Shown here in pieces: positions 18,397 to 35,002 of a stretch of DNA of 64,000 nt (position 1 is its first letter; each line of letters opens with the position of its first letter). The position numbers and the translations under genes are program-made. The stretch is from Actinomycetota bacterium (GTDB lineage Bacteria > Actinomycetota > UBA4738 > HRBIN12), in the NCBI GenBank assembly GCA_040881665.1, contig JBBECT010000005.1:202138-266137 (forward strand). Direction: 5' to 3'. The notes beneath the pieces are model-generated. The model saw only the letters and a program-made list of their open reading frames with translations. It had not been told where the DNA came from and made no database searches.

Positions 18397-20322
<1,926 letters not shown>

Positions 20323-20332
20323 CGAGCCTCCA

Positions 20333-22255
20333 TCAGGCGCCCGCGGCTGTTGCGACCGAGAGCTTGTCGATCCGGATCGCGGAGGCCTTGAACTCGGCGG
20401 TGCCGGACTTGGGATCGGTGGCGTCGATCGTGAGCCGGTTCGTCTCGACTTCCTCCGGGAAGTGGAACGTCATGAACGTCAGCCCCCGGCGCAGCGTCGG
20501 GTCGATCCGGATCGGCGCCTCCAGGGATCCACGCCGTGAGGTCACGCGGACGATCTCACCGTCGGCGACACCGAGGTCGCGCGCGTCCTCCGGGGAGACG
20601 TCGACCGACTCGCCCCGTCGCAGCGGCGAGGAGAACCCGCCGGTCTGTACCCCGGTGTTGTAGTCGGTGAGCCGCCGCCCGGTGGTCAACCGCAACGGGT
20701 ACTCGTCGGTCAGCCGGTCGACGGGATCGGCTTGCGGCGTGATGCTGAAGGGAGCGGGCATGCCGCGCTCCTCGGGATCCTCCGACCACAGACGCTCGTG
20801 GAGGAACCGCGTTCCCGGGTGCTCTTCGTCGGGACAGGGCCACTGCAGACCACCCAGCTCTTCGAGACGGCGGTAGCTCATGCCGGCGTGCATCGGGCTG
20901 AGCGCGCGGAGCTCGTCCCACGCCTCTTCGGGAGTGAGCTCGCCCCATCGGGCGCCCATCCGGTTCGCGATCTCGCCGATGATCCAGATGTCGTCGCGCG
21001 CCCGGCCCGGTGGCTCCAGCGCCTTGCGCACGCGCTGGACACGCCGCTCGGAGTTGGTCACCGTGCCCTCGGTCTCGGCCCACGAGGCGCTGGCCGGCAG
21101 GACGACGTCGGCGAGCTCCGCGGTCTTGGTCATGAAGATATCCTGCACGATCAGCGTGTGGAGGTTCCCGAGCAGCTTGCGCGCCCGATGGAGGTCGGCC
21201 TCGGAGCTCGCGGGGTTCTCGCCGATCACGTACACGGCCGTGAGGTCGCCGCGTTCCATCGCATCGAACATCTGCGTGAGATGCCAGCCGTACCGAGGGG
21301 GGACCGGCACGCCCCAGGCTCGCTCGAACCTCTCGCGCGCGGCGGCATCGGTCTCGATGTCCTGGAACCCCGGCAACTTGTTCGGGATCGCGCCCATGTC
21401 GCCGCCGCCCTGGACGTTGTTCTGCCCGCGCAGCGGGTTCAGACCGCTGCCGTAGGTCCCGACGTGGCCGGTCAGCAGACCGAGGTTGATCAACGCGAGG
21501 ACGTTGTCCACCGCGTTGTGGTGCTCGGTGATCCCCAGGGTCCAGCAGATCATCGCCCGATCCGCGCGCGCGAACGCGAGCGCCGCCTCGCGGATCGCCG
21601 GGGCGGGCACCCCGGTCACCCGCGCACCGCGCTCGAGCGTCCACGGCTCCACGCTCGCGGCGTAGTCGGCGAACCCCTCGGTCCCGCGCTCGATGAACGT
21701 CTTGTCGTGCAGATCGTTCGCGATGATCTCCCGAGCCATCGTGTTCGACAGGGCCACGTCGGTGCCCACGTCGATACCGAGCCACAGGTCGGCCCATTCC
21801 GCGGTGGTCGAACGCCGCGGGTCGACCGTGAACATCCGCGCGCCGTTGCGGATGCCCTTCAAGACGTGGTGGAAGAAGATCGGATGCGTCTCCCGCGCGT
21901 TCGATCCCCACATGATGACGAGGTCGGTGTTCTCGACCTCCTCGTATGAACTTGTACCGCCACCGGCCCCGAACGCGGTCGCCAGACCGACGACCGAAGG
22001 TGCGTGTCAGGTTCGGTTGCAGCTATCGATGTTGTTGCTGTGAAGGACCTGACGGATGAACTTCTGAGCGACGAAGTTCATCTCGTTCGTGGCCTTCGAG
22101 CAACTGAACAGGCCGACCCCGTCGCCGCCGTTCGCCTCGGTGGCCGCGGTCAATCCCTGCGCGGCCCGATCGAGGGCCACCTCCCAGGGAACGACCCGCA
22201 GCTCGCCGTTCTCGCGAACCATCGGCTCGGTGAGTCGCGCGAGCCCGTTCGGCAT
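20333..22255 (-). CDS. Formate dehydrogenase catalytic subunit, selenoprotein (in-frame UGA = Sec83)
   Basis: 640 aa if UGA at 22007-22009 is read as selenocysteine; ordinary callers will split it at this codon. ATG 22255 follows AAGGAG with 6-nt spacing. Around the UGA the protein reads NNIDSCNRT-U-HAPSVVGL, exactly the catalytic Sec/Cys context of FdhF/FdhA. A SECIS hairpin follows immediately. The rest is a Mo-bis-MGD oxidoreductase: NTDLVIMWGSNARETHP, DPRRSTTAEWAD, LNPLRGQNNVQGGGDMG, ENPASSEADLHRA and the C-terminal MGD-binding domain (GRRLTDYNTG, then GVADGEIVRVTSRRG). It starts after the point where the [4Fe-4S] module would normally be; that module is in the 17367-18392 gene. Sec insertion genes (selA, selB, selC, selD) are not in this window. 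Confidence 0.92.
21977..21995 (-). ncRNA. Bacterial SECIS element in the FDH mRNA
   Basis: Just downstream of the UGA, GGTCGTC (21995-21989) pairs with GGCGACC (21983-21977), 7 bp with one G-U, around a 5-nt GGTCT loop (21988-21984). The loop sequence and its distance from the UGA (G at nucleotide 22 counting the U of UGA as 1) match the Escherichia coli fdhF SECIS as I recall it. This is strong evidence for SelB-directed selenocysteine insertion. Confidence 0.88.
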
Positions 22256-23455: not shown

Positions 23456-25126
23456 ATGAAGAGCGGACTGGAGATCGCACAGGAGGCGGAGCTCCGCCCC
23501 ATCACCGAGGTCGCGGAGGCCGCGGGCCTGCTGCCCGACGAGATCGAGCCTTACGGGGCTCACCGCGGCAAGATCCGGCTGTCGGTCCTCGAGCGTCTCG
23601 CAGGACGACCCGACGGCAAGCTCGTGATCACCACGGCGATCACCCCGACGAAGGCCGGCGAAGGGAAGACGACGACCTCCGTCTCCCTCACACAGGGGCT
23701 CGGCAAGATCGGCAAGGACGTGATGCTCTGTCTCCGCGAGCCGAGCATGGGACCGGTCTTCGGCATCAAGGGTGGCGGCACCGGGGGTGGCTACGCGCAG
23801 GTCGTTCCGATGGAGGAGATCAACCTCCACTTCAACGGCGACTTCCACGCGGTCACGACCGCGCACAACCTGCTCGCCGCGGCGCTCGACGCCTCGCTGT
23901 ACCACGGCAATCCGCTCGACATCGATCCCGCGACGATCACCTGGCCCCGCACGATGGACATGAACGAGCGCGAGCTCCGCTACACGGTCGTCGGACTCGG
24001 TGGCAGGGCGCACGGCGTGCCGCGGGAGAACTCCTTCGTGATCACGGCGGCCTCGGAGGTCATGGCCGTGTTCGCACTCGCGAGCGACCTGCGGGACCTA
24101 CGCAACCGGCTCGGACGGATCGTCGTCGCCGAGACCCACGACGGCAAGCCTGTCACCGCCGAGGACCTCGAGGTCGCGGGTGCGATGACCGTCGTGATGC
24201 GGGAGGCGATCAAGCCGAACCTCGTTCAGACCCTCGAACACCAGCCGACCCTGTTGCACGCGGGACCGTTCGGCAACATCGCGCACGCGAACAACTCGAT
24301 CATCGAGGACCGGATCGCGCTCAAGCTCGCCGACTATGTGATCACCGAGGCCGGCTTCGCATCCGATCTCGGTTTCCAGAAGTTCTGCGACATCGTCTGT
24401 CGAACCGGCGGGTTCGCTCCGAGCGCGTCCGTACTCGTCACGACGATCCGCGCCACGAAGTCGCACGGAGGCAAGCGATTCGAGGACCTCGGGGAGGAGG
24501 ACCTCACCGCCCTCCGAGGCGGCATCGACAACCTGACGGCCCACATCGAGATCGTGAAGCGCTACGGGCTGCCGTGCGTCGTGTCGATCAACCGCTTCCC
24601 CACCGACACGGCGGACGAGGTCGCGCTGATCTCCGAGCTCGCGACCGCGGCGGGTGCCGAGACCGTCGTCGTGAACAACGCGTTCGCCGAGGGAGGCGAT
24701 GGAGCGATCGAGCTCGCCGAGGCGGTCGTAGCCGCGTGCGAACGACCGAACACCTTCGGATACCTCACCCCCCCGGAAACCCCGATCAAGGAGCAGGTCG
24801 AGGCCATCGCCACGCAGCTCTACGGAGCGGACGGCGTGGACTTCCTCCCCCAGGCGGTGAAGGACATCGAACGCATGGACGCCCTCGGGTTTGGCACCTT
24901 CCCCGTCTGCATGGCGAAGACCCACCTGTCGCTGTCGCACGACCCCAAGATGTTGAATCGCCCCCGGGGTTTCCGGCTCCCGGTCCGCTCGGTGGTGCCG
25001 AGCGCCGGCGCGGGCTTCGTCGTCGTGCTCTGCGGCGACATGCAGCGCATGCCGGGGCTCGGCAAGACGCCCGCGTTCAAGAACGTCGACATCGACGCGA
25101 ACGGTACGACCGTCGGCCTCTTCTGA
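23456..25126 (+). CDS. fhs: Formate-tetrahydrofolate ligase
   Basis: 556 aa. Makes 10-formyl-THF from formate, THF and ATP, or runs in reverse to yield ATP and formate. P-loop TPTKAGEGKTTTSVSL about residues 63-78; also EPSMGPVFGIKGGGTGGGYAQV, DMNERELR, TEAGFASDLGFQKFCDIVCR, a VSINRFPTDT-type segment, AKTHLSLSHDPK and PGFVVxLCGD/MPGLGK-like C-terminal signatures. Full length. It lies between fdhD and the GcvT-like genes and shares a candidate operator with the latter, so it should interconvert formate (FDH side) and folate-bound C1 units. Confidence 0.96.
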   Translation: MKSGLEIAQEAELRPITEVAEAAGLLPDEIEPYGAHRGKIRLSVLERLAGRPDGKLVITTAITPTKAGEGKTTTSVSLTQGLGKIGKDVMLCLREPSMGPVFGIKGGGTGGGYAQVVPMEEINLHFNGDFHAVTTAHNLLAAALDASLYHGNPLDIDPATITWPRTMDMNERELRYTVVGLGGRAHGVPRENSFVITAASEVMAVFALASDLRDLRNRLGRIVVAETHDGKPVTAEDLEVAGAMTVVMREAIKPNLVQTLEHQPTLLHAGPFGNIAHANNSIIEDRIALKLADYVITEAGFASDLGFQKFCDIVCRTGGFAPSASVLVTTIRATKSHGGKRFEDLGEEDLTALRGGIDNLTAHIEIVKRYGLPCVVSINRFPTDTADEVALISELATAAGAETVVVNNAFAEGGDGAIELAEAVVAACERPNTFGYLTPPETPIKEQVEAIATQLYGADGVDFLPQAVKDIERMDALGFGTFPVCMAKTHLSLSHDPKMLNRPRGFRLPVRSVVPSAGAGFVVVLCGDMQRMPGLGKTPAFKNVDIDANGTTVGLF

Positions 25127-25128
25127 GC

Positions 25129-25176
25129 GTTCGGCCGCCCGACCGAACAGATCAGCTGTGACCGGGCGGGTCGGTC
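25129..25176. terminator. Two hairpins between convergent fhs and GcvT-like genes
   Basis: GTTCGG (25129-25134) pairs with CCGAAC (25143-25148), and GACCG (25160-25164) pairs with CGGTC (25172-25176). They fill the 48-nt convergent gap and probably act as a bidirectional terminator. Confidence 0.5.
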
Positions 25177-26275
25177 AGGCGCGCGGCTTGCGCTTGTTCG
25201 GGTCGTAGATCGAAAGGTCGTCGACCGTGGCCTTCGCGGTCCCGCCGTCGACGGCCACTTCGAGCTCCGTGCCGTTCGTCGCCTGGTCGGTGCGGAGCAC
25301 CGCGAGCCCGATCACGCCGAACAGAGGACTCTCGGCCGCGCTCGTGAGCGTTCCGACCTCTTCACCGCCGCGACGGACCGGCGTGCCGTACTCGGGAGCA
25401 GCCGTTCCCGCGATCCGCAGGGTCTTGAAGCGATTGGGCGGATCGGCGGCCTGCTCGCGCAGGCGGTCCTTCCCGAGGAAGTCGCACTCCGGCGTGTCGA
25501 TCGCGATCATCCGGTCGAAGGACAGGTCGTAGGGAGAACGGGCGCCGGGCTCGTACTCGACCCCCGCGACGATCAGACCCGCCTCGATCCGCGCGATCTC
25601 GACCGCGTGTGTTCCGAACGGCCGGCCGCCGGCATCCTGGAGGGCGTTCCACAGATCGACCGCGCGATCGCGGTCCGGGATCAGCTCGTAGCCCAGCTCG
25701 CCGGAGAACCCCGTGCGCAACAGCCACACCGGGATCCCCGCGACCTGCACCCGTTCGGGGAGGAACCGGAAGTACCCGAGCCCGGTGAGATCCGCATCCG
25801 TCACCTTCGAGAGCACCGTGCGCGACTCCGGGCCCTGCACCGAGATCAGGGGCATCTCGGCGGTCCGGTCGACGATCGAAACGTCGAGACCCTGCATCGC
25901 GCCCGCGAAGTACTCGTCGTAGCCGGGCATGTTCGTCATCACCCAGCAGTGGTCGTCGGCGACCCGGTAGATCGTCCCGTCGTCGACCATGTTCCCGGTC
26001 TCGTCGACGAAGGCTCCGTAGCGCACCTGACCGATCTGCAGATTCACCACGTCGTTCGTGAACACGCGCTGCGCGGCGCGGAGGGCGTCGGGGCCGGAGA
26101 AGTCCCATTTCACGAGCGGGTAGACGTCCCAGAGCCCGGCGCCCTTGCGGATCACGTCGTACTCGCCCATCACGTCGCCGAGATGCGCGGTCCACCAGAA
26201 CCCGTCGAAGTCCTCGAACTCGGCGCCGGCGGCGGCTTGGACGTCGTACAGCGGTGACTTCACCGATCCGGCCAT
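25175..26275 (-). CDS. GcvT-fold folate-dependent methyltransferase/demethylase, paralogue 1
   Basis: 366 aa from ATG 26275 (GAGGGGAG just upstream). Three-domain GcvT/DmdA fold: N-terminal GAGLWDVYPLVKWDFSG, the folate-site segment GNMVDDGTIYRV with the conserved Asp that activates THF in GcvT, ISVQGPESR, RTGFSGELGYEL, a RIEAGLIV-type helix, and a C-terminal beta domain ending IYDPNKRKPRA. No gcvH or gcvP is nearby, so glycine cleavage is unlikely. It follows its paralogue by 28 nt. Demethylation of a small methylated compound (N-, S- or O-methyl) onto THF is the best guess; the substrate is not readable from sequence. Confidence 0.85.
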   Translation of the reverse strand: MAGSVKSPLYDVQAAAGAEFEDFDGFWWTAHLGDVMGEYDVIRKGAGLWDVYPLVKWDFSGPDALRAAQRVFTNDVVNLQIGQVRYGAFVDETGNMVDDGTIYRVADDHCWVMTNMPGYDEYFAGAMQGLDVSIVDRTAEMPLISVQGPESRTVLSKVTDADLTGLGYFRFLPERVQVAGIPVWLLRTGFSGELGYELIPDRDRAVDLWNALQDAGGRPFGTHAVEIARIEAGLIVAGVEYEPGARSPYDLSFDRMIAIDTPECDFLGKDRLREQAADPPNRFKTLRIAGTAAPEYGTPVRRGGEEVGTLTSAAESPLFGVIGLAVLRTDQATNGTELEVAVDGGTAKATVDDLSIYDPNKRKPRA

Positions 26276-26303
26276 GCTGCTCCCCTCGGTCGGGTGACCC
26301 CGT

Positions 26304-27404
26304 TCAGCTACGGGGTCTGGTCTTGTTCGGGTCGTAGATCGCGAGGACGTCGACCGTCCCGGGGATCGCACCGCTCTCGTGGGCGATCTCCACCTTCTCC
26401 CCGTCGGATGCGACATCGCTTGCCAGGATCGCCAGCCCGATGCCGCCGAACGTCGGCGACTGGCACGGGCTCGTCAGCACGCCGACCTCGGCTCCGCCCG
26501 ACGTCAACTTCGAGCCGTACTCGGGCGTGAGGTCACCATCCCACTTCACGGTCTTGAAGCGGTTCGGGGGGTTCTTGGCGATCTCGGACAGTTTCGCCTT
26601 GCCGTTGAACGCCGCGTCCGCCTTCCCCGTGGCCACGAGCCGATCCATGTTGAAGTCGAACGGCGTTCGCGTGTTCTGCTCGTAGTCGTAGTCGGTGACG
26701 ATCATGCCGGTCTCGATGCGTATCGGCTCGATCACCCCGACCCCGTACGGCTGTGCGCCGGCGCCGTGGACGGCCTTCCAGAGGTCCTCGGCGTTCTCGG
26801 CCGCAACGAACAGCTCGAAGCCCAGCTCGCCCGAGAAGCCCGTCCGCGACAGCGTGACGGGCACGCCCCCGACCTTCACCTGTTCGGGCAGGAACGTGAA
26901 GTACTTCAGGCTCGACAGGTCGGCGTCGGTGAGCACGGCGAGGAAGTCGCGCGATCGCGGCCCCTGCACCTGCAGGTTCGGCAGCTCGAACGAGCGGTAT
27001 TCGATGTTCACGTCGAGGCCCTGCGTGTTCCCCGCGAAGTACTCGCGCCGCTCCATGCCGTTGGTCATCACCCAGTAGTGGTCGCCCGCGAACTTGTAGA
27101 CCGTCCCGTCGTCGACCATCAGACCGTCGATGTCGAGGAACGCTCCGTATTTGACCTGTCCCACCGACATGCCGGCGATGTCGTTGCTGTGGATCCGCTG
27201 GATCGCGGTGGTCGCGTCCTTGCCGGTGAATTCCCACTTGTTCAAAGGTGCGAGATCCCACATCCCGACGTTCTCGCGTGGAGCGCGGTACTCGGCATCG
27301 GTGTCGCCGAACGACTCGGTCCACAGCCACCCGCCTTCGGGCACGAACGTGGCGCCCATCGACTCCTGGATCGCGTGGAGGGGGGACTTGTGTTCGTCGG
27401 CCAT
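26304..27404 (-). CDS. GcvT-fold folate-dependent methyltransferase/demethylase, paralogue 2
   Basis: 366 aa, exactly the length of its downstream neighbour and clearly homologous along its whole length. Seen: NVGMWDLAPLNKWEFTG, GLMVDDGTVYKF (putative folate-activating Asp), LQVQGPRSRDFL, SRTGFSGELGFEL, RIETGMIV and the shared C-terminus IYDPNKTRPRS. ATG 27404 is preceded by AAGGAGGT. First gene of a two-gene unit with a promoter at about 27455-27484. The pair may form a heteromer or handle two successive methyl groups; both are inference. Confidence 0.85.
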   Translation of the reverse strand: MADEHKSPLHAIQESMGATFVPEGGWLWTESFGDTDAEYRAPRENVGMWDLAPLNKWEFTGKDATTAIQRIHSNDIAGMSVGQVKYGAFLDIDGLMVDDGTVYKFAGDHYWVMTNGMERREYFAGNTQGLDVNIEYRSFELPNLQVQGPRSRDFLAVLTDADLSSLKYFTFLPEQVKVGGVPVTLSRTGFSGELGFELFVAAENAEDLWKAVHGAGAQPYGVGVIEPIRIETGMIVTDYDYEQNTRTPFDFNMDRLVATGKADAAFNGKAKLSEIAKNPPNRFKTVKWDGDLTPEYGSKLTSGGAEVGVLTSPCQSPTFGGIGLAILASDVASDGEKVEIAHESGAIPGTVDVLAIYDPNKTRPRS

Positions 27405-27454: not shown

Positions 27455-27484
27455 GTTCTACCAGGGATTTGACTGACGGTTCAA
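27455..27484 (-). promoter_or_regulatory. Promoter and TTGA-N8-TCAA motif of the GcvT-like pair
   Basis: Minus strand: -35 TTGAAC (27484-27479), 18-nt spacer, -10 TAGAAC (27460-27455). The -35 is part of TTGA-N8-TCAA (27484-27469), which matches the site in the fhs leader at TTGAAC and TCAA. It overlaps the stop codon of the upstream cyclo-ligase gene. Confidence 0.4.
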
Positions 27485-28101
27485 GTCGAGGCCCGCCGAG
27501 CAGCGACGTTCTCGACGCCGTCCTCGGTCACGAGCAGGTCGACCGGCAGGTCCAAGTGCCCCCGGGGAACCTCCTCGACGCGCTGGACGGCAAGGCCGAT
27601 GCCGATCAGCAGGGTGTCGTCGCGCACCTTCGTGAGGAATCGATCGTAGAAACCGCCCCCGTACCCGATCCGGTATCCGAGCCGGTCGAACGCGACCGCG
27701 GGAACGAGCGCGGCGTCGACCTGATCGGGCTCGACGAGCGCGCCCTCCGCGGGCTCTCTGGCGCCGAACGAGGTCTCGAGCACCGGGTCACCGGGACGGT
27801 AGCTCCTCGCTTCGAGTTCCCCTTCTGCGATCAGCGGCAGGCAGACCATCACCCCCTCGGCGAGCAGCTCGTCGATCAGGAGTCCGGTCGGGAGTTCGGA
27901 GCCGAACGCCCAGAACGCCATCGCGACCCGGGCCCCCCGGTCGTGGAGGATCTCGCGCACCAGCCCGGAGATCTCCGCGGCCGCCAGATCGCGATCGAGG
28001 GTCGATACGCCGTCGCGTCGCTCGAGCACCGCACGGCGCAGCCGCTTCTTCTCCTTCTTCAGATCCGTGGGGTTCGATCCGGGTGCGCCGACATCGGTCA
28101 T
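27481..28101 (-). CDS. 5-formyltetrahydrofolate cyclo-ligase
   Basis: 206 aa. Converts 5-formyl-THF to 5,10-methenyl-THF with ATP, rescuing a dead-end folate. N-terminal KKEKKRLRRAVLERR matches the family's basic helix; AFWAFGSELPTGLLID, CLPLI, LVPAVAFDRLGYRIGYGGGFYDRFL (the family signature) and IGIGLAVQRVEEVP follow. ATG 28101 overlaps the stop of the LLM oxidoreductase by 4 nt (ATGA). Last gene of a coupled operon that begins with the ArsA-like ATPase. Confidence 0.93.
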   Translation of the reverse strand: MTDVGAPGSNPTDLKKEKKRLRRAVLERRDGVSTLDRDLAAAEISGLVREILHDRGARVAMAFWAFGSELPTGLLIDELLAEGVMVCLPLIAEGELEARSYRPGDPVLETSFGAREPAEGALVEPDQVDAALVPAVAFDRLGYRIGYGGGFYDRFLTKVRDDTLLIGIGLAVQRVEEVPRGHLDLPVDLLVTEDGVENVAARRAST

Positions 28102-29006
28102 CCGGCCAGCACCCCCGCCGCTCGGGCGGTCTCGGCGATCACCGAAACCCGGTCCGCGGGACCGGCCGCCATCACGATGGCCCATGTCGCCCCCGTCTCG
28201 GCGATCCCGCGCAGATGCGCACCGAATCCCTCCGCGGTCCCCTTCCAGACCCCTTGCCCCGGCGCACCCCGCTCCTCGCGCTCGATCGCAAGCCGGGCCA
28301 GCTCGTCGTCGTCGCGGCCGACGAGGGCCAGTCCCGCCCACGTCGGCGGGACGTCGCGTCCGGCCTGAACGCCGGCCGCCCGGAGTCGGTCCACCCGCTC
28401 GCGGAACCCCTCCAGGTCCAACCCCCATCCGTTCCAGGCGTCGGCGACCCGTGCGGCGAGCCGGATCGCGGCGGGCGCGGTTCCTCCGATCCAGATCGGC
28501 GGTCCTCCCGGCGTGACGGTCGGAGGGACCAGGGGCCCCTGCATCGGCGGCACGCGATCACCGCCCGGCCAGGGCTCACCGCTGAACAGGTGCCGGCACG
28601 CGCCGACGGTCTCCTCCAGCAGCTCGCGGCGCTCGGACGCCGGGGGCGAGGCGAACCCGAAGGTCTCGGCCTCGGGATCCCGGCCCGCGTCGCCGGTGCC
28701 GAGCGCGAGGATCAGCCGACCGCCGGAGATCTGGTCGACGGCCGCGGCGTGCTTCGCCAGCATCGCCGGCGATCGGAGCGTGACGCGAGCCACGAGCGTA
28801 CCGAGTGCGAGCCTCGTGGTCGCCTCCGCGACGAGCGAGAGCGTCGTGAACACCTCGATCGAGGGTCGCGAGACATCGGCCCACGGCGGGAACAGGTGGT
28901 CGAAGGCGAAGGCCCCGTCGAACCCGAGCTCCTCCGCCTCGATCCCGGCCTCGCGGACGCGCCGGGGATCTCCGGAGAACAGCGGGAGCAGCAGTCCGAG
29001 CTTCAT
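28098..29006 (-). CDS. LLM-class (luciferase-like, F420/flavin-type) oxidoreductase
   Basis: 302 aa from ATG 29006, overlapping the ROK kinase stop as ATGA; the much longer open frame upstream is a shadow of that gene. TIM-barrel LLM family: MKLGLLLPLF, EELGFDGAFAFDHLF, LALGTLVARVTLRSPAMLAKHAAAVDQISGGRLILALGTGD, PPIWIGGTAPAAIRLAARVADAWNGWG. Members use F420H2 or FMN. It is coupled to the cyclo-ligase, so a folate C1 reductase is worth testing: mycobacteria have an LLM-like non-canonical methylene-THF reductase (MfrA). No metF-type gene is in this window. Confidence 0.85.
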   Translation of the reverse strand: MKLGLLLPLFSGDPRRVREAGIEAEELGFDGAFAFDHLFPPWADVSRPSIEVFTTLSLVAEATTRLALGTLVARVTLRSPAMLAKHAAAVDQISGGRLILALGTGDAGRDPEAETFGFASPPASERRELLEETVGACRHLFSGEPWPGGDRVPPMQGPLVPPTVTPGGPPIWIGGTAPAAIRLAARVADAWNGWGLDLEGFRERVDRLRAAGVQAGRDVPPTWAGLALVGRDDDELARLAIEREERGAPGQGVWKGTAEGFGAHLRGIAETGATWAIVMAAGPADRVSVIAETARAAGVLAG

Positions 29007-32946: not shown

Positions 32947-34095
32947 TCAGGCGGGTCCCTTGATCGCGGCGCGCGTGAGCCACCCCGCCAGTCGATCGGC
33001 CACGCGTGTCCACGAGAGTTGCTGCTCGACTCGTGCCCTGCCCGCCCGTCCCATCGCCGAGGCGCGGTCGGGATCGGCGAGCAGCCCGGCGACGGCGTCG
33101 GCGATCTGCCCGGCGTCGGTCCCGTCCACGACGAGCCCGGTCTGCCCGTCGAGGACCGCCTCGGGAGCGCCGCCCGACCGGCCGGCGATGCCGGGAAGCC
33201 CGCTCGCCGCCGCCTCGACGAAGACGATCCCCCACCCCTCGACCTCCAGCCCCCCCAGCCGGTCGCGGCAGGGCATCGCGAACACGTCGCCGAGCGCGTA
33301 CGCCAGGGGAAGCTGCTCGTCGGTCACCTGCCCTGCGAAGACCACCGAGCCCGCGGGCACGTCGGCGGCGAGCCGCTCGAGCCGGGTCCGATCCTGTCCG
33401 CCGCCGACCAGCACGAGGACGGCGTCGGGAACCCGCTCGCGCACCCGGGCGATCGTCCGGATCAGGATGTCCTGCCCCTTCCGCGGCACGAGCCGGCTGA
33501 CGCACACCACCACCGGTCTGCCCGCGACACCCAGCCTGCGCCGCAGCTCCTCCACCTCCGGGCCCCGGTCGGGGCGGAACCGGCTGGGGTCCACGCCCGG
33601 CGCGAGCACCGCGACCGGCACGGCCTGCGGGACCGCGGTGCGCACCACGCGCGCGACGAAGTGCGAGCAGACGAGCACCCCGGAGGCGCGCGAGGTCGCG
33701 CGGCGTAGGAACGCGTGCGCCCCGGGCGCGAGGGACATCCAGTACTCGAACCCGTGGGCGAGCGTGACGTACGGGAATCCCTGATCCGCGAGCGCCGGCC
33801 CGATCCCGGCGAGCGGTACCGGCGAGCCGAACAGGATCACGTCGGCCGCGTGCTCGCGAGCGAGCGAGAGCACGCGTTCCCGCACCCCGGGCGTGGGCCA
33901 GAGGGGGCGCGATCCGATCCGCTCGACGCGGAAGGACTGGGTGCGGTCGTATCCCGTGTCGCCGGCCGCGCCGGGCGCGAGCACCGCCACGCGATCGGCA
34001 GGGAGCTGTGCCGTGAGCGCGTGGACGAACGTCTGGACGCCGCCGACGTGCGGAGGGAAATCGTTCGTGACCACGAGGGTCCGGGGAACATCCAC
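32947..34095 (-). CDS. GT4 glycosyltransferase, PimB'-like
   Basis: 382 aa from GTG 34095 (reading VDVPRTLVVTNDFPP). GT-B fold: N-terminal VTNDFPPHVGGVQTFVHAL, a donor domain with VSRLVPRKGQDILI, GGGQDRTRLERLA, and the acceptor/nucleotide signature MPCRDRLGGLEVEGWGIVFVEAAASGLPGIAG. These match PimB', which adds the second mannose to phosphatidylinositol mannosides with GDP-mannose. The nearby ArsA-like, SRPBCC and small genes mirror the mycobacterial pimB' region. Exact acceptor unproven. Its start is only 22 nt from the divergent ygfZ start. Confidence 0.88.
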   Translation of the reverse strand: MDVPRTLVVTNDFPPHVGGVQTFVHALTAQLPADRVAVLAPGAAGDTGYDRTQSFRVERIGSRPLWPTPGVRERVLSLAREHAADVILFGSPVPLAGIGPALADQGFPYVTLAHGFEYWMSLAPGAHAFLRRATSRASGVLVCSHFVARVVRTAVPQAVPVAVLAPGVDPSRFRPDRGPEVEELRRRLGVAGRPVVVCVSRLVPRKGQDILIRTIARVRERVPDAVLVLVGGGQDRTRLERLAADVPAGSVVFAGQVTDEQLPLAYALGDVFAMPCRDRLGGLEVEGWGIVFVEAAASGLPGIAGRSGGAPEAVLDGQTGLVVDGTDAGQIADAVAGLLADPDRASAMGRAGRARVEQQLSWTRVADRLAGWLTRAAIKGPA

Positions 34096-34117
34096 GGAGC
34101 CGTATCCTCGCAGAAGG
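34096..34117. promoter_or_regulatory. 22-bp divergent start region between pimB'-like gene and ygfZ
   Basis: TATCCT (34103-34108, plus) is the -10 for ygfZ, 9 nt before its ATG. The reverse strand offers a weaker TACGGC overlapping it. Both genes must be nearly leaderless or the pimB'-like gene must begin elsewhere. Confidence 0.4.
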
Positions 34118-35002
34118 ATGCACACCCTCGACGACGACACTGCTCGCGAGCTCGAACTCCTCGAACGGGAAGCGCCGGTCGTGGTGGATCGGCGGAACCG
34201 GCGAGCGATCCGGGTCGGAGGCGCCGACGCCGTTGCGTGGCTGCACGACCTGCTCACCGCCGATATCCAGGGGCTGGCTCCCGGCGCGACTATCCGATCG
34301 CTGCTCCTGTCGCCCACCGGTCGCATCCGAGGCGAGGTCCACGTCTACCGTCGCCCCGAGGACGTCGTCCTCTCTCAGGACCCGGCGCACGGACGTCCGA
34401 TCGAGGAGCTGCTCGCCCCCTACGTGCTCTCCTCGGACGTGGTCCTCGAGCCGGCCGGGGTCGGGGTCGTGTGCGTGCTCGGGCCCGGAGAACCCGCACG
34501 GGAGCACTGGCGCCCCTCCCAGCTGTTCGCGACCGGACGGGACGGTGGCGATGGTGCCGACCTGCTCCTGGCGCCCGACGTTCCGCTCCCGGAGGGGTTC
34601 GCGACCGTCGGTTGGCAGGCCGTCGACCTGTGGCGGACCCGGCGCGGCGACGTGCGCTTCGGTCTCGACCTGGACGAGGAGTCGCTGCCGGCGGAGGCCG
34701 GGCTGGACGATCCCGAGGCTGGCGTGATCGACGGCTCGAAGGGCTGCTACCTCGGTCAGGAGTCGGTCGCGAAGATCCGCAACTTCGGCCACCCACGGAG
34801 GGTGCTCGTGGCCGCCGATGCCGCGGAAACGGTCCTCGCGGGAACGCCGATCCACGCGGTCGCCGACCCCACCTCGGCGGCCGGGCTCGTGACGAGCGCC
34901 GCCCCCCGGCCGGGAGGCGGTACCCGGATGATCGTCCGGATCCGCTGGGCCGACCGGGAGAAGGCACTGACCGCGGCGGGCAAGGCGATCACCTTGGTCT
35001 GA
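34118..35002 (+). CDS. ygfZ: Folate-binding protein YgfZ (GcvT fold)
   Basis: 294 aa. GcvT-like tRNA-modification/Fe-S cluster repair protein, identified by the Cys signature KGCYLGQES (about 208-216) and the N-terminal VGGADAVAWLHDLLTADIQGLAPG. YgfZ helps assemble or protect [4Fe-4S] clusters in a folate-dependent way, which fits a genome with many Fe-S enzymes (FDH, KorAB, SUF). Third GcvT-fold protein of the window. ATG 34118 lies 9 nt after TATCCT with no Shine-Dalgarno; leaderless or nearly so. Confidence 0.92.
   Translation: MHTLDDDTARELELLEREAPVVVDRRNRRAIRVGGADAVAWLHDLLTADIQGLAPGATIRSLLLSPTGRIRGEVHVYRRPEDVVLSQDPAHGRPIEELLAPYVLSSDVVLEPAGVGVVCVLGPGEPAREHWRPSQLFATGRDGGDGADLLLAPDVPLPEGFATVGWQAVDLWRTRRGDVRFGLDLDEESLPAEAGLDDPEAGVIDGSKGCYLGQESVAKIRNFGHPRRVLVAADAAETVLAGTPIHAVADPTSAAGLVTSAAPRPGGGTRMIVRIRWADREKALTAAGKAITLV

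What the first reader, a model, noticed from the sequence alone, without database searches (positions are those of the whole stretch)
25175..27404. Twin GcvT-fold proteins (366 aa each) in a formate/folate cluster without a glycine cleavage system
Both keep the folate-activating Asp, share a C-terminal IYDPNK motif, and sit between formate-THF ligase and formyl-THF cyclo-ligase, close to FDH. This looks like a dedicated folate-dependent demethylation route: methylated substrate to THF-C1 to formate to CO2 with NADH. Substrate and reason for two copies are unknown; a previously undescribed system is possible.
Basis: partly seen in the sequence, partly recalled or inferred. Interest (0 to 1): 0.75.

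Follow-up and report, generated by a model that had tools for sequence, protein, structure and literature searches.

The report
Twin folate proteins feeding formate oxidation
Two neighbouring bacterial proteins, descended from an ancient duplication and uncharacterised so far, most likely load one-carbon units stripped from methylated compounds onto folate so that nearby enzymes can burn them to formate and CO2; the chemistry follows a known scheme, but this protein family has no assigned function.

Summary
Window 26304-27404 (A) and 25175-26275 (B), both minus strand, are 366-aa GcvT-fold paralogues, 50.5% identical without gaps. Each keeps the folate Asp (D99) and ends in a YDPxK motif. They lie beside fhs, 5-formyl-THF cyclo-ligase and a selenocysteine formate dehydrogenase. 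Two claims need correcting. The genome does have a complete glycine cleavage system (gcvT is 3.9 kb past the window end; gcvP and gcvH are elsewhere). The C-terminal motif is not special to the twins; it is shared with TMAO demethylase (Tdm). In a maximum-likelihood tree A and B fall in a 100/100-supported actinobacterial family, outside GcvT, Tdm, DmmD, the sarcosine oxidase domain and this genome's DmdA-like proteins. A occurs in all 15 family genomes at least 80% complete and lies beside fhs in all 11 relatives' loci that reach it; B occurs in 8 of 15. Distant relatives sit beside purU, N-methylglutamate synthase, OYE-type/Etf genes or GbcA-like Rieske genes. Best explanation: stand-alone folate acceptors that turn demethylation-derived C1 (probably formaldehyde) into 5,10-methylene-THF for THF-linked oxidation to CO2, a scheme known from SAR11 and methylotrophs. 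The protein family and pair are uncharacterised; substrate and donor enzyme are unknown.

The parts
26304..27404 (-). Protein A: stand-alone GcvT-fold, folate-binding protein (366 aa)
   Evidence: PF01571 E=2.8e-56 and PF08669; AF2 pLDDT 89.3, TM 0.90-0.92 to GcvT structures; present in 15/15 family genomes at least 80% complete
25175..26275 (-). Protein B: paralogue of A (366 aa), 28 nt downstream of A
   Evidence: 50.5% identical to A without gaps; PF01571 E=6.2e-55; AF2 pLDDT 93.4; separate B clade 100/99
27481..28101 (-). 5-formyl-THF cyclo-ligase (MTHFS), directly upstream of A (76-nt gap)
   Evidence: TIGR02727 141 bits, cut-off 84.9; conserved next to A in relatives
23456..25126 (+). 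Formate-THF ligase (fhs), convergent with B
   Evidence: NF010030 775 bits, cut-off 652; beside A in 11/11 relatives' loci long enough to show it, 71-80% identity
22357..23199 (-). FdhD, formate dehydrogenase accessory sulfurtransferase
   Evidence: NF001943 310 bits, cut-off 269
20333..22255 (-). Formate dehydrogenase catalytic part, in-frame TGA at 22007-22009 read as selenocysteine (CNRT-U-HAPSVVGL)
   Evidence: TIGR01591 E=5e-155; translation with TGA=U; SelB in the genome, 334 bits over a cut-off of 242
18397..20322 (-). NuoE-NuoF-like fusion, the NADH-linked electron-transfer subunit of the FDH
   Evidence: PF01257, PF01512, PF10589
17367..18392 (-). NuoG/FdhA-N-terminal-like Fe-S subunit of the FDH
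   Evidence: NCBIfam NuoG and Fdh-alpha N-terminal matches
28098..29006 (-). F420-type LLM oxidoreductase, conserved upstream neighbour; role unknown, below every curated cut-off
   Evidence: homologues in 10 relatives' loci

Best explanation
A and B are stand-alone, folate-binding GcvT-like proteins that catalyse the entry step of THF-linked one-carbon oxidation. A C1 unit (most likely formaldehyde or an N-methyl-derived iminium released by a separate oxidative demethylase) is joined to THF, giving 5,10-methylene-THF. FolD (encoded elsewhere) converts it to 10-formyl-THF, Fhs releases formate and makes ATP, and the selenocysteine formate dehydrogenase oxidises formate to CO2 with NADH; MTHFS repairs 5-formyl-THF. 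A and B come from an ancient duplication and probably serve different donors. Shown by sequence: fold, conserved folate-site residues, gene context, distinct phylogeny, A universal and B partial in the family, FolD present. Inferred: direction of flux, formaldehyde-level (not methyl-level) chemistry, and different donors for A and B.
For: Fold and folate residues. The GcvT-only Arg227 ('GARD') is I/V in A/B, as it is hydrophobic in Tdm; positions conserved in A/B and Tdm but not GcvT include K56, G100, L194, D358, K361. A beside fhs in 11/11 relatives' loci that reach it, plus MTHFS, FdhD/FDH and often FtcD and FchA cyclohydrolase. Distant members adjacent to purU in 5 loci; other relatives near N-methylglutamate synthase genes, OYE/EtfAB/Fe-S genes, mycothiol-dependent formaldehyde dehydrogenase, or GbcA-like Rieske genes. 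FolD x2 in the genome. No mycothiol-dependent formaldehyde dehydrogenase over cut-off, so THF is a plausible formaldehyde sink. Contrast in the same genome: a DmdA-like twin pair sits with metF, while no metF lies near any A/B-family locus. DmmD precedent: a THF-binding protein proposed to conjugate formaldehyde (PMC5520151). SAR11 precedent: THF-linked oxidation (PMC3160333). Ponticoccus FDH-fhs-folD-tdm and Paracoccus purU-folD-dmmD clusters.
Against: No demethylase or amine oxidase lies in the A/B locus, and none is conserved beside A across the family; N-methylglutamate synthase is in only 3 of 10 family genomes tested and is absent here. FTCD_C/FchA and DUF1989 are absent from this genome. 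B-clade members in some genomes have Glu instead of the folate Asp. GcvT-like folate binding does not by itself distinguish methylene- from methyl-level transfer. The same genes could run in the assimilatory direction.
Confidence: 0.58

Rival explanations
1. A and B are redox-neutral demethylases (DmdA/LigM-like) that move a methyl group from a specific donor directly to THF, giving 5-methyl-THF, each with its own substrate.
For: Stand-alone GcvT-fold proteins with known function include such enzymes (DmdA, LigM); the fold match to DmdA 3tfh is TM 0.87-0.88; two paralogues would fit two substrates; Trp28 and Trp49 are conserved in 48/48 and 48/49 family members but not in GcvT or Tdm, and could line a substrate pocket (not tested).
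Against: No metF near any A/B-family locus, whereas the genome's DmdA-like pair does sit with metF; A/B do not group with the DmdA-like proteins and score only 129-133 bits against the DmdA model, cut-off 410; LigM/DesA matches are below 50 bits.
Confidence: 0.2
2. A and B work in the opposite, assimilatory or C1-supply direction: fhs makes formyl-THF from formate for biosynthesis, and A/B hand C1 units to acceptors.
For: fhs is reversible and MTHFS is a housekeeping folate gene, and the genome has a complete glycine cleavage system.
Against: Relatives carry FtcD, FchA, FDH with FdhD, and distant members carry purU, an irreversible formate-releasing deformylase; A/B lack the GcvT-specific Arg and no gcvH lies nearby.
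Confidence: 0.1
3. A and B are extra T-proteins of glycine cleavage or reductive glycine synthesis working with the genome's gcvH/gcvP.
For: GcvT fold; 205-210 bits to the GcvT subfamily model.
Against: Below both GcvT cut-offs (300 and 236 bits), which the real GcvT passes at 415 and 327; no gcvH/gcvP near any A/B-family locus, with positive controls; separate clade; Arg227 lost.
Confidence: 0.04
4. A and B are folate-binding accessory or regulatory proteins (YgfZ/IBA57-like Fe-S assembly factors, or formaldehyde sensors) of the formate dehydrogenase cluster.
For: YgfZ/IBA57 share the fold, and FDH is an Fe-S and molybdenum enzyme.
Against: The window has its own YgfZ/CAF17 homologue at 34076-35002; A/B keep full GcvT length and the catalytic Asp; TM to YgfZ/IBA57 is only about 0.6-0.66.
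Confidence: 0.06

Closest known systems
TMAO demethylase Tdm, C-terminal folate domain (PDB 9q59; NF053776)
   Same: GcvT fold, DDG folate motif, hydrophobic residue in place of GcvT Arg227, C-terminal YDPxK(x)RPRS end; found with fhs/FDH/folD in Ponticoccus.
   Different: A/B lack the N-terminal demethylase part (DUF1989 is absent from the whole genome); only 32-34% identical; 211-232 bits against a cut-off of 1100, no better than true GcvT (222); separate clade 100/100.
DmmD, accessory protein of dimethylamine monooxygenase
   Same: Stand-alone THF-binding GcvT-like protein proposed to conjugate formaldehyde with THF (PMC5520151); located with purU and folD in Paracoccus.
   Different: 32-34% identical; outside the A/B clade, beside Tdm with weak support and on a long branch; no dmmABC seen beside A/B.
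GcvT, glycine cleavage T-protein
   Same: Fold and Asp96, Tyr83 equivalents.
   Different: 27-34% identical; loses Arg227; no gcvH/gcvP partners; below curated cut-offs.
SAR11 THF-linked oxidation pathway and its GcvT-like proteins of unknown substrate (SAR11_1265, SAR11_1303)
   Same: folD, fhs, formate dehydrogenase and extra aminomethyltransferase-like proteins thought to supply C1.
   Different: Different phylum; the SAR11 proteins themselves were not compared here.
Arthrobacter sp. 31Y C1 cluster (folD, mch, purU, formaldehyde dehydrogenase, aminomethyltransferase)
   Same: Actinobacterial aminomethyltransferase clustered with C1-folate genes (PMC5023230).
   Different: Sequence not compared here; function of that protein also unproven.

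Membership tests
GcvT (glycine cleavage T-protein) | Passes the curated GcvT models (NF001567 300 bits; TIGR00528 235.85) | tested here: not met
   A 204.7/167.8, B 209.7/164.1; the genome's own GcvT 414.8/326.6
GcvT (glycine cleavage T-protein) | gcvH/gcvP partner genes nearby | tested here: not met
   No hit in any A/B-family locus; hits in L060-L062 controls
GcvT (glycine cleavage T-protein) | Catalytic Asp (T. maritima Asp96) and GcvT-type Arg227 | tested here: not met
   Asp kept (D99), Arg replaced by I225 in A and V225 in B
TMAO demethylase (Tdm) | N-terminal DUF1989-like demethylase domain fused to the folate domain | tested here: not met
   A/B are 366 aa of GcvT domain only; no DUF1989 match in the genome
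TMAO demethylase (Tdm) | Groups with Tdm in a tree | tested here: not met
   Separate 100/100 clade
DmmD | Groups with DmmD; co-located with dmmABC | tested here: not met
   DmmD falls outside the A/B clade; no dmmABC seen in the loci
DmdA (DMSP demethylase) | Passes NF009133 (410 bits) | tested here: not met
   129 and 133 bits; also apart from the genome's DmdA-like proteins
LigM/DesA aryl O-demethylases | Passes NF047885/NF047633 | tested here: not met
   31-47 bits against 580/800
Sarcosine oxidase alpha / DMG oxidase folate domain | Fusion to an FAD or NAD oxidoreductase domain | tested here: not met
   Stand-alone 366-aa proteins; outside the TSOX-alpha branch. The DMG oxidase domain was compared by sequence search and fold only
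THF-linked C1 oxidation pathway | fhs (or purU), folD and formate dehydrogenase in the genome, clustered with the C1-entry protein | tested here: met
   fhs, FDH and FdhD adjacent; folD twice elsewhere
THF-linked C1 oxidation pathway | Measured oxidation of a methyl or formaldehyde carbon to CO2 | not testable with these tools
   Needs an assay; no isolate of this taxonomic family was identified here

The most novel reading that the evidence does not exclude
A is a dedicated stand-alone enzyme that condenses free formaldehyde with THF (a folate counterpart of the formaldehyde-activating enzyme), serving as the universal formaldehyde entry point of this actinobacterial family, with B a partner specialised for another C1 donor.
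Probability: 0.22. Interest if true: 0.68.

Novelty: new variant of a known kind. Interest (0 to 1): 0.42.

Why it matters
Whether formaldehyde joins THF spontaneously or needs an enzyme in bacteria is, to my knowledge, an open question; DmmD and the Tdm C-domain are candidates without biochemical proof as separate proteins. This family gives single-domain candidates, universal in one lineage and tied to fhs/FDH, in which the step can be tested. It also warns against annotating such proteins as GcvT or as a specific demethylase.

Tried and rejected
Glycine cleavage: rejected. Tdm membership: the Tdm profile is the top curated hit for A/B, but true GcvT scores the same against it (222 against 211-232 bits), so the score carries no membership weight. 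Methylamine/N-methylglutamate pathway as the specific donor: the genes lie beside A in one family genome, but are absent from 7 of 10 tested including this one. FtcD/FchA as part of the system: conserved in several relatives; absent from this locus, and no FTCD_C match anywhere in this genome. Recent duplication as the reason for two copies: rejected, since the A and B clades each contain members from other actinobacteria. The first gcvH control used the wrong ORF and was repeated correctly. Promoter and RNA-family scans gave nothing useful. The plasmid protein search gave only hits below 35% identity, many annotated as sarcosine oxidase alpha. The organism was not placed more finely than Actinomycetota.

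Full report
WHAT IS THERE. A (26304-27404) and B (25175-26275), both on the minus strand, are intact 366-aa ORFs with a 28-nt gap between them, 76 nt downstream of the 5-formyl-THF cyclo-ligase gene (27481-28101) and convergent with fhs (23456-25126, 48-nt gap to B). They are 185/366 identical with no gap. Both match PF01571 and PF08669. AlphaFold2 models made from 17-18-row alignments have pLDDT 89.3 and 93.4 and match solved T-proteins at TM about 0.9, the sarcosine and dimethylglycine oxidase folate domains at 0.87-0.91 and DmdA at 0.87-0.88. The gene order toward lower coordinates is fdhD, then a split formate dehydrogenase with an in-frame TGA at 22007-22009 in the motif CNRT-U-HAPSVVGL; SelB is encoded in the genome.

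IS IT A GLYCINE CLEAVAGE PROTEIN? No. The genome has a protein that passes the GcvT models (L009:7700-8809, 415 and 327 bits), plus gcvP and gcvH elsewhere. A and B score below both cut-offs. The Arg227 position of GcvT is Ile or Val in A/B, hydrophobic in Tdm and Met in sarcosine oxidase, while the folate Asp (T. maritima Asp96 = D99) and Tyr83 (= Y86) remain. No gcvH or gcvP lies in any A/B-family locus; the same search finds gcvH beside canonical gcvT in the control loci L060-L062 and gcvP in L060 and L062.

WHICH FAMILY? Trees (quick; with bootstrap) put A and B in a family of actinobacterial proteins with 100/100 support in the last. Outside it lie GcvT, the sarcosine oxidase alpha domain, this genome's DmdA-like proteins, the Tdm C-terminal domain (Methylocella, Paracoccus, Ponticoccus) and DmmD of Paracoccus aminophilus. 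Most members are stand-alone; L094-L098 are fused to an unidentified N-terminal region. Inside, A-type (22 rows, 97/85) and B-type (8 rows, 100/99) split early, and each holds proteins of other actinobacteria, so the two copies are an old duplication. The C-terminal YDPxK is shared with Tdm (D358 in 49/49 family members, K361 in 48/49, both in 19/19 of the Tdm group), as are K56, G100 and L194; W28, W49 and Y241 are characteristic of this family. A third close paralogue in the genome (57% to A) sits beside hydantoinase HyuA/HyuB-like genes.

CONSERVATION. In the same taxonomic family A is found in 15 of 15 genomes at least 80% complete (this one included) and a second copy in 8 of 15; the sister families of the order have no match above 235 bits, against more than 600 for A. 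Outside the family only 2 of about 385 sampled Actinomycetota genomes have a match at E <= 1e-110. In all 11 relatives' loci long enough to show it, fhs is beside A; MTHFS, FdhD and FDH recur, and several relatives have FtcD and an FchA-like methenyl-THF cyclohydrolase between A (or the pair) and fhs. More distant family members lie beside purU in 5 loci (L071, L076, L077, L080, L085), OYE-type and EtfAB/Fe-S genes (L082, L090-L092), a mycothiol-dependent formaldehyde dehydrogenase (L077), GbcA-like Rieske oxygenases (L084, L087, L088) or MttB-like proteins (L096-L099). One family genome has N-methylglutamate synthase genes directly next to fhs and A (L045), but this genome has none.

HOW IT PROBABLY WORKS. 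The recurrent partners are C1-releasing demethylation systems on one side and formyl-THF to formate to CO2 on the other, so A/B most likely make 5,10-methylene-THF. FolD is present twice, so the path to formate is complete without FchA, which is absent here. A telling contrast lies in the same genome: a second twin pair, DmdA-like (306 and 341 bits to the DmdA model, cut-off 410), sits with metF, as expected if it makes methyl-THF, whereas no A/B-family locus has metF. That favours methylene-level chemistry for A/B, meaning formaldehyde or an iminium as donor, as proposed for DmmD (PMC5520151) and known for the folate domains of the sarcosine and dimethylglycine oxidases (established knowledge). 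No mycothiol-dependent formaldehyde dehydrogenase passes its cut-off. Flux direction, the donor and the A/B division of labour are inference.

WHAT IS KNOWN. THF-linked oxidation with folD, fhs and FDH and with GcvT-like proteins of unknown substrate is published for SAR11 (PMC3160333). A similar cluster with an aminomethyltransferase is noted in Arthrobacter 31Y (PMC5023230). Annotated records show FDH-fhs-folD-folD-tdm in Ponticoccus and purU-folD-...-dmmD-dmmABC-tdm in Paracoccus. The system type is therefore known. The protein family and its pairing have, in the sources searched, no assigned function.

LIMITS. SAR11_1265/1303, LigM/DesA, DMG oxidase and Arthrobacter 31Y sequences were not in the trees. 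DmmD sits on a long branch. Gene calls in relatives come from a GC3-based caller written here. Adjacency is not proof of co-transcription. The sample of genomes is uneven and mostly metagenome-assembled.

Noticed in passing
window 20333-22255 (-), TGA at 22007-22009: The formate dehydrogenase catalytic subunit is a selenoprotein; automatic ORF calling splits it in two, and the same split call appears in relatives L050, L053 and L054. SelB is present in the genome.
   Followed up: partly
L010:4642-7195 (genome C5, about 78.6-81.2 kb): A second twin GcvT-fold pair, DmdA-like, lies beside metF, an MTHFR C-terminal-like protein and a GbcA-like Rieske oxygenase; a possible methyl-THF-forming demethylation locus.
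   Followed up: partly
L013:591-9607 (genome C4, about 915-925 kb): Third close paralogue of A (57%) next to a solute-binding protein, hydantoinase HyuA/HyuB-like subunits and FAD oxidoreductases; suggests N-methylhydantoin/creatinine or a similar substrate.
   Followed up: no
L094-L098, e.g. L096:9131-11128: Family members fused to an N-terminal region of about 285 aa; the one scanned (L096) has no Pfam match there. In L096-L098 an MttB-like methyltransferase gene lies nearby (also in the truncated locus L099).
   Followed up: no
window 34076-35002 (+): Third GcvT-fold gene in the window, a YgfZ/CAF17-like Fe-S assembly factor (TIGR03317 over cut-off).
   Followed up: partly
L111 and L114: Records titled 'Bifidobacterium breve' MAG and 'Oceanobacillus sp. 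HTM 045' carry Tdm proteins that group closely with Solirubrobacterales and Neomegalonema ones; the organism labels may be wrong or the contigs foreign.
   Followed up: no
whole genome G000: Fourteen GCV_T matches in 2.46 Mb, several in long ORFs that look like fusions to FAD or sarcosine-oxidase-like modules: an unusually heavy investment in folate-linked demethylation.
   Followed up: partly
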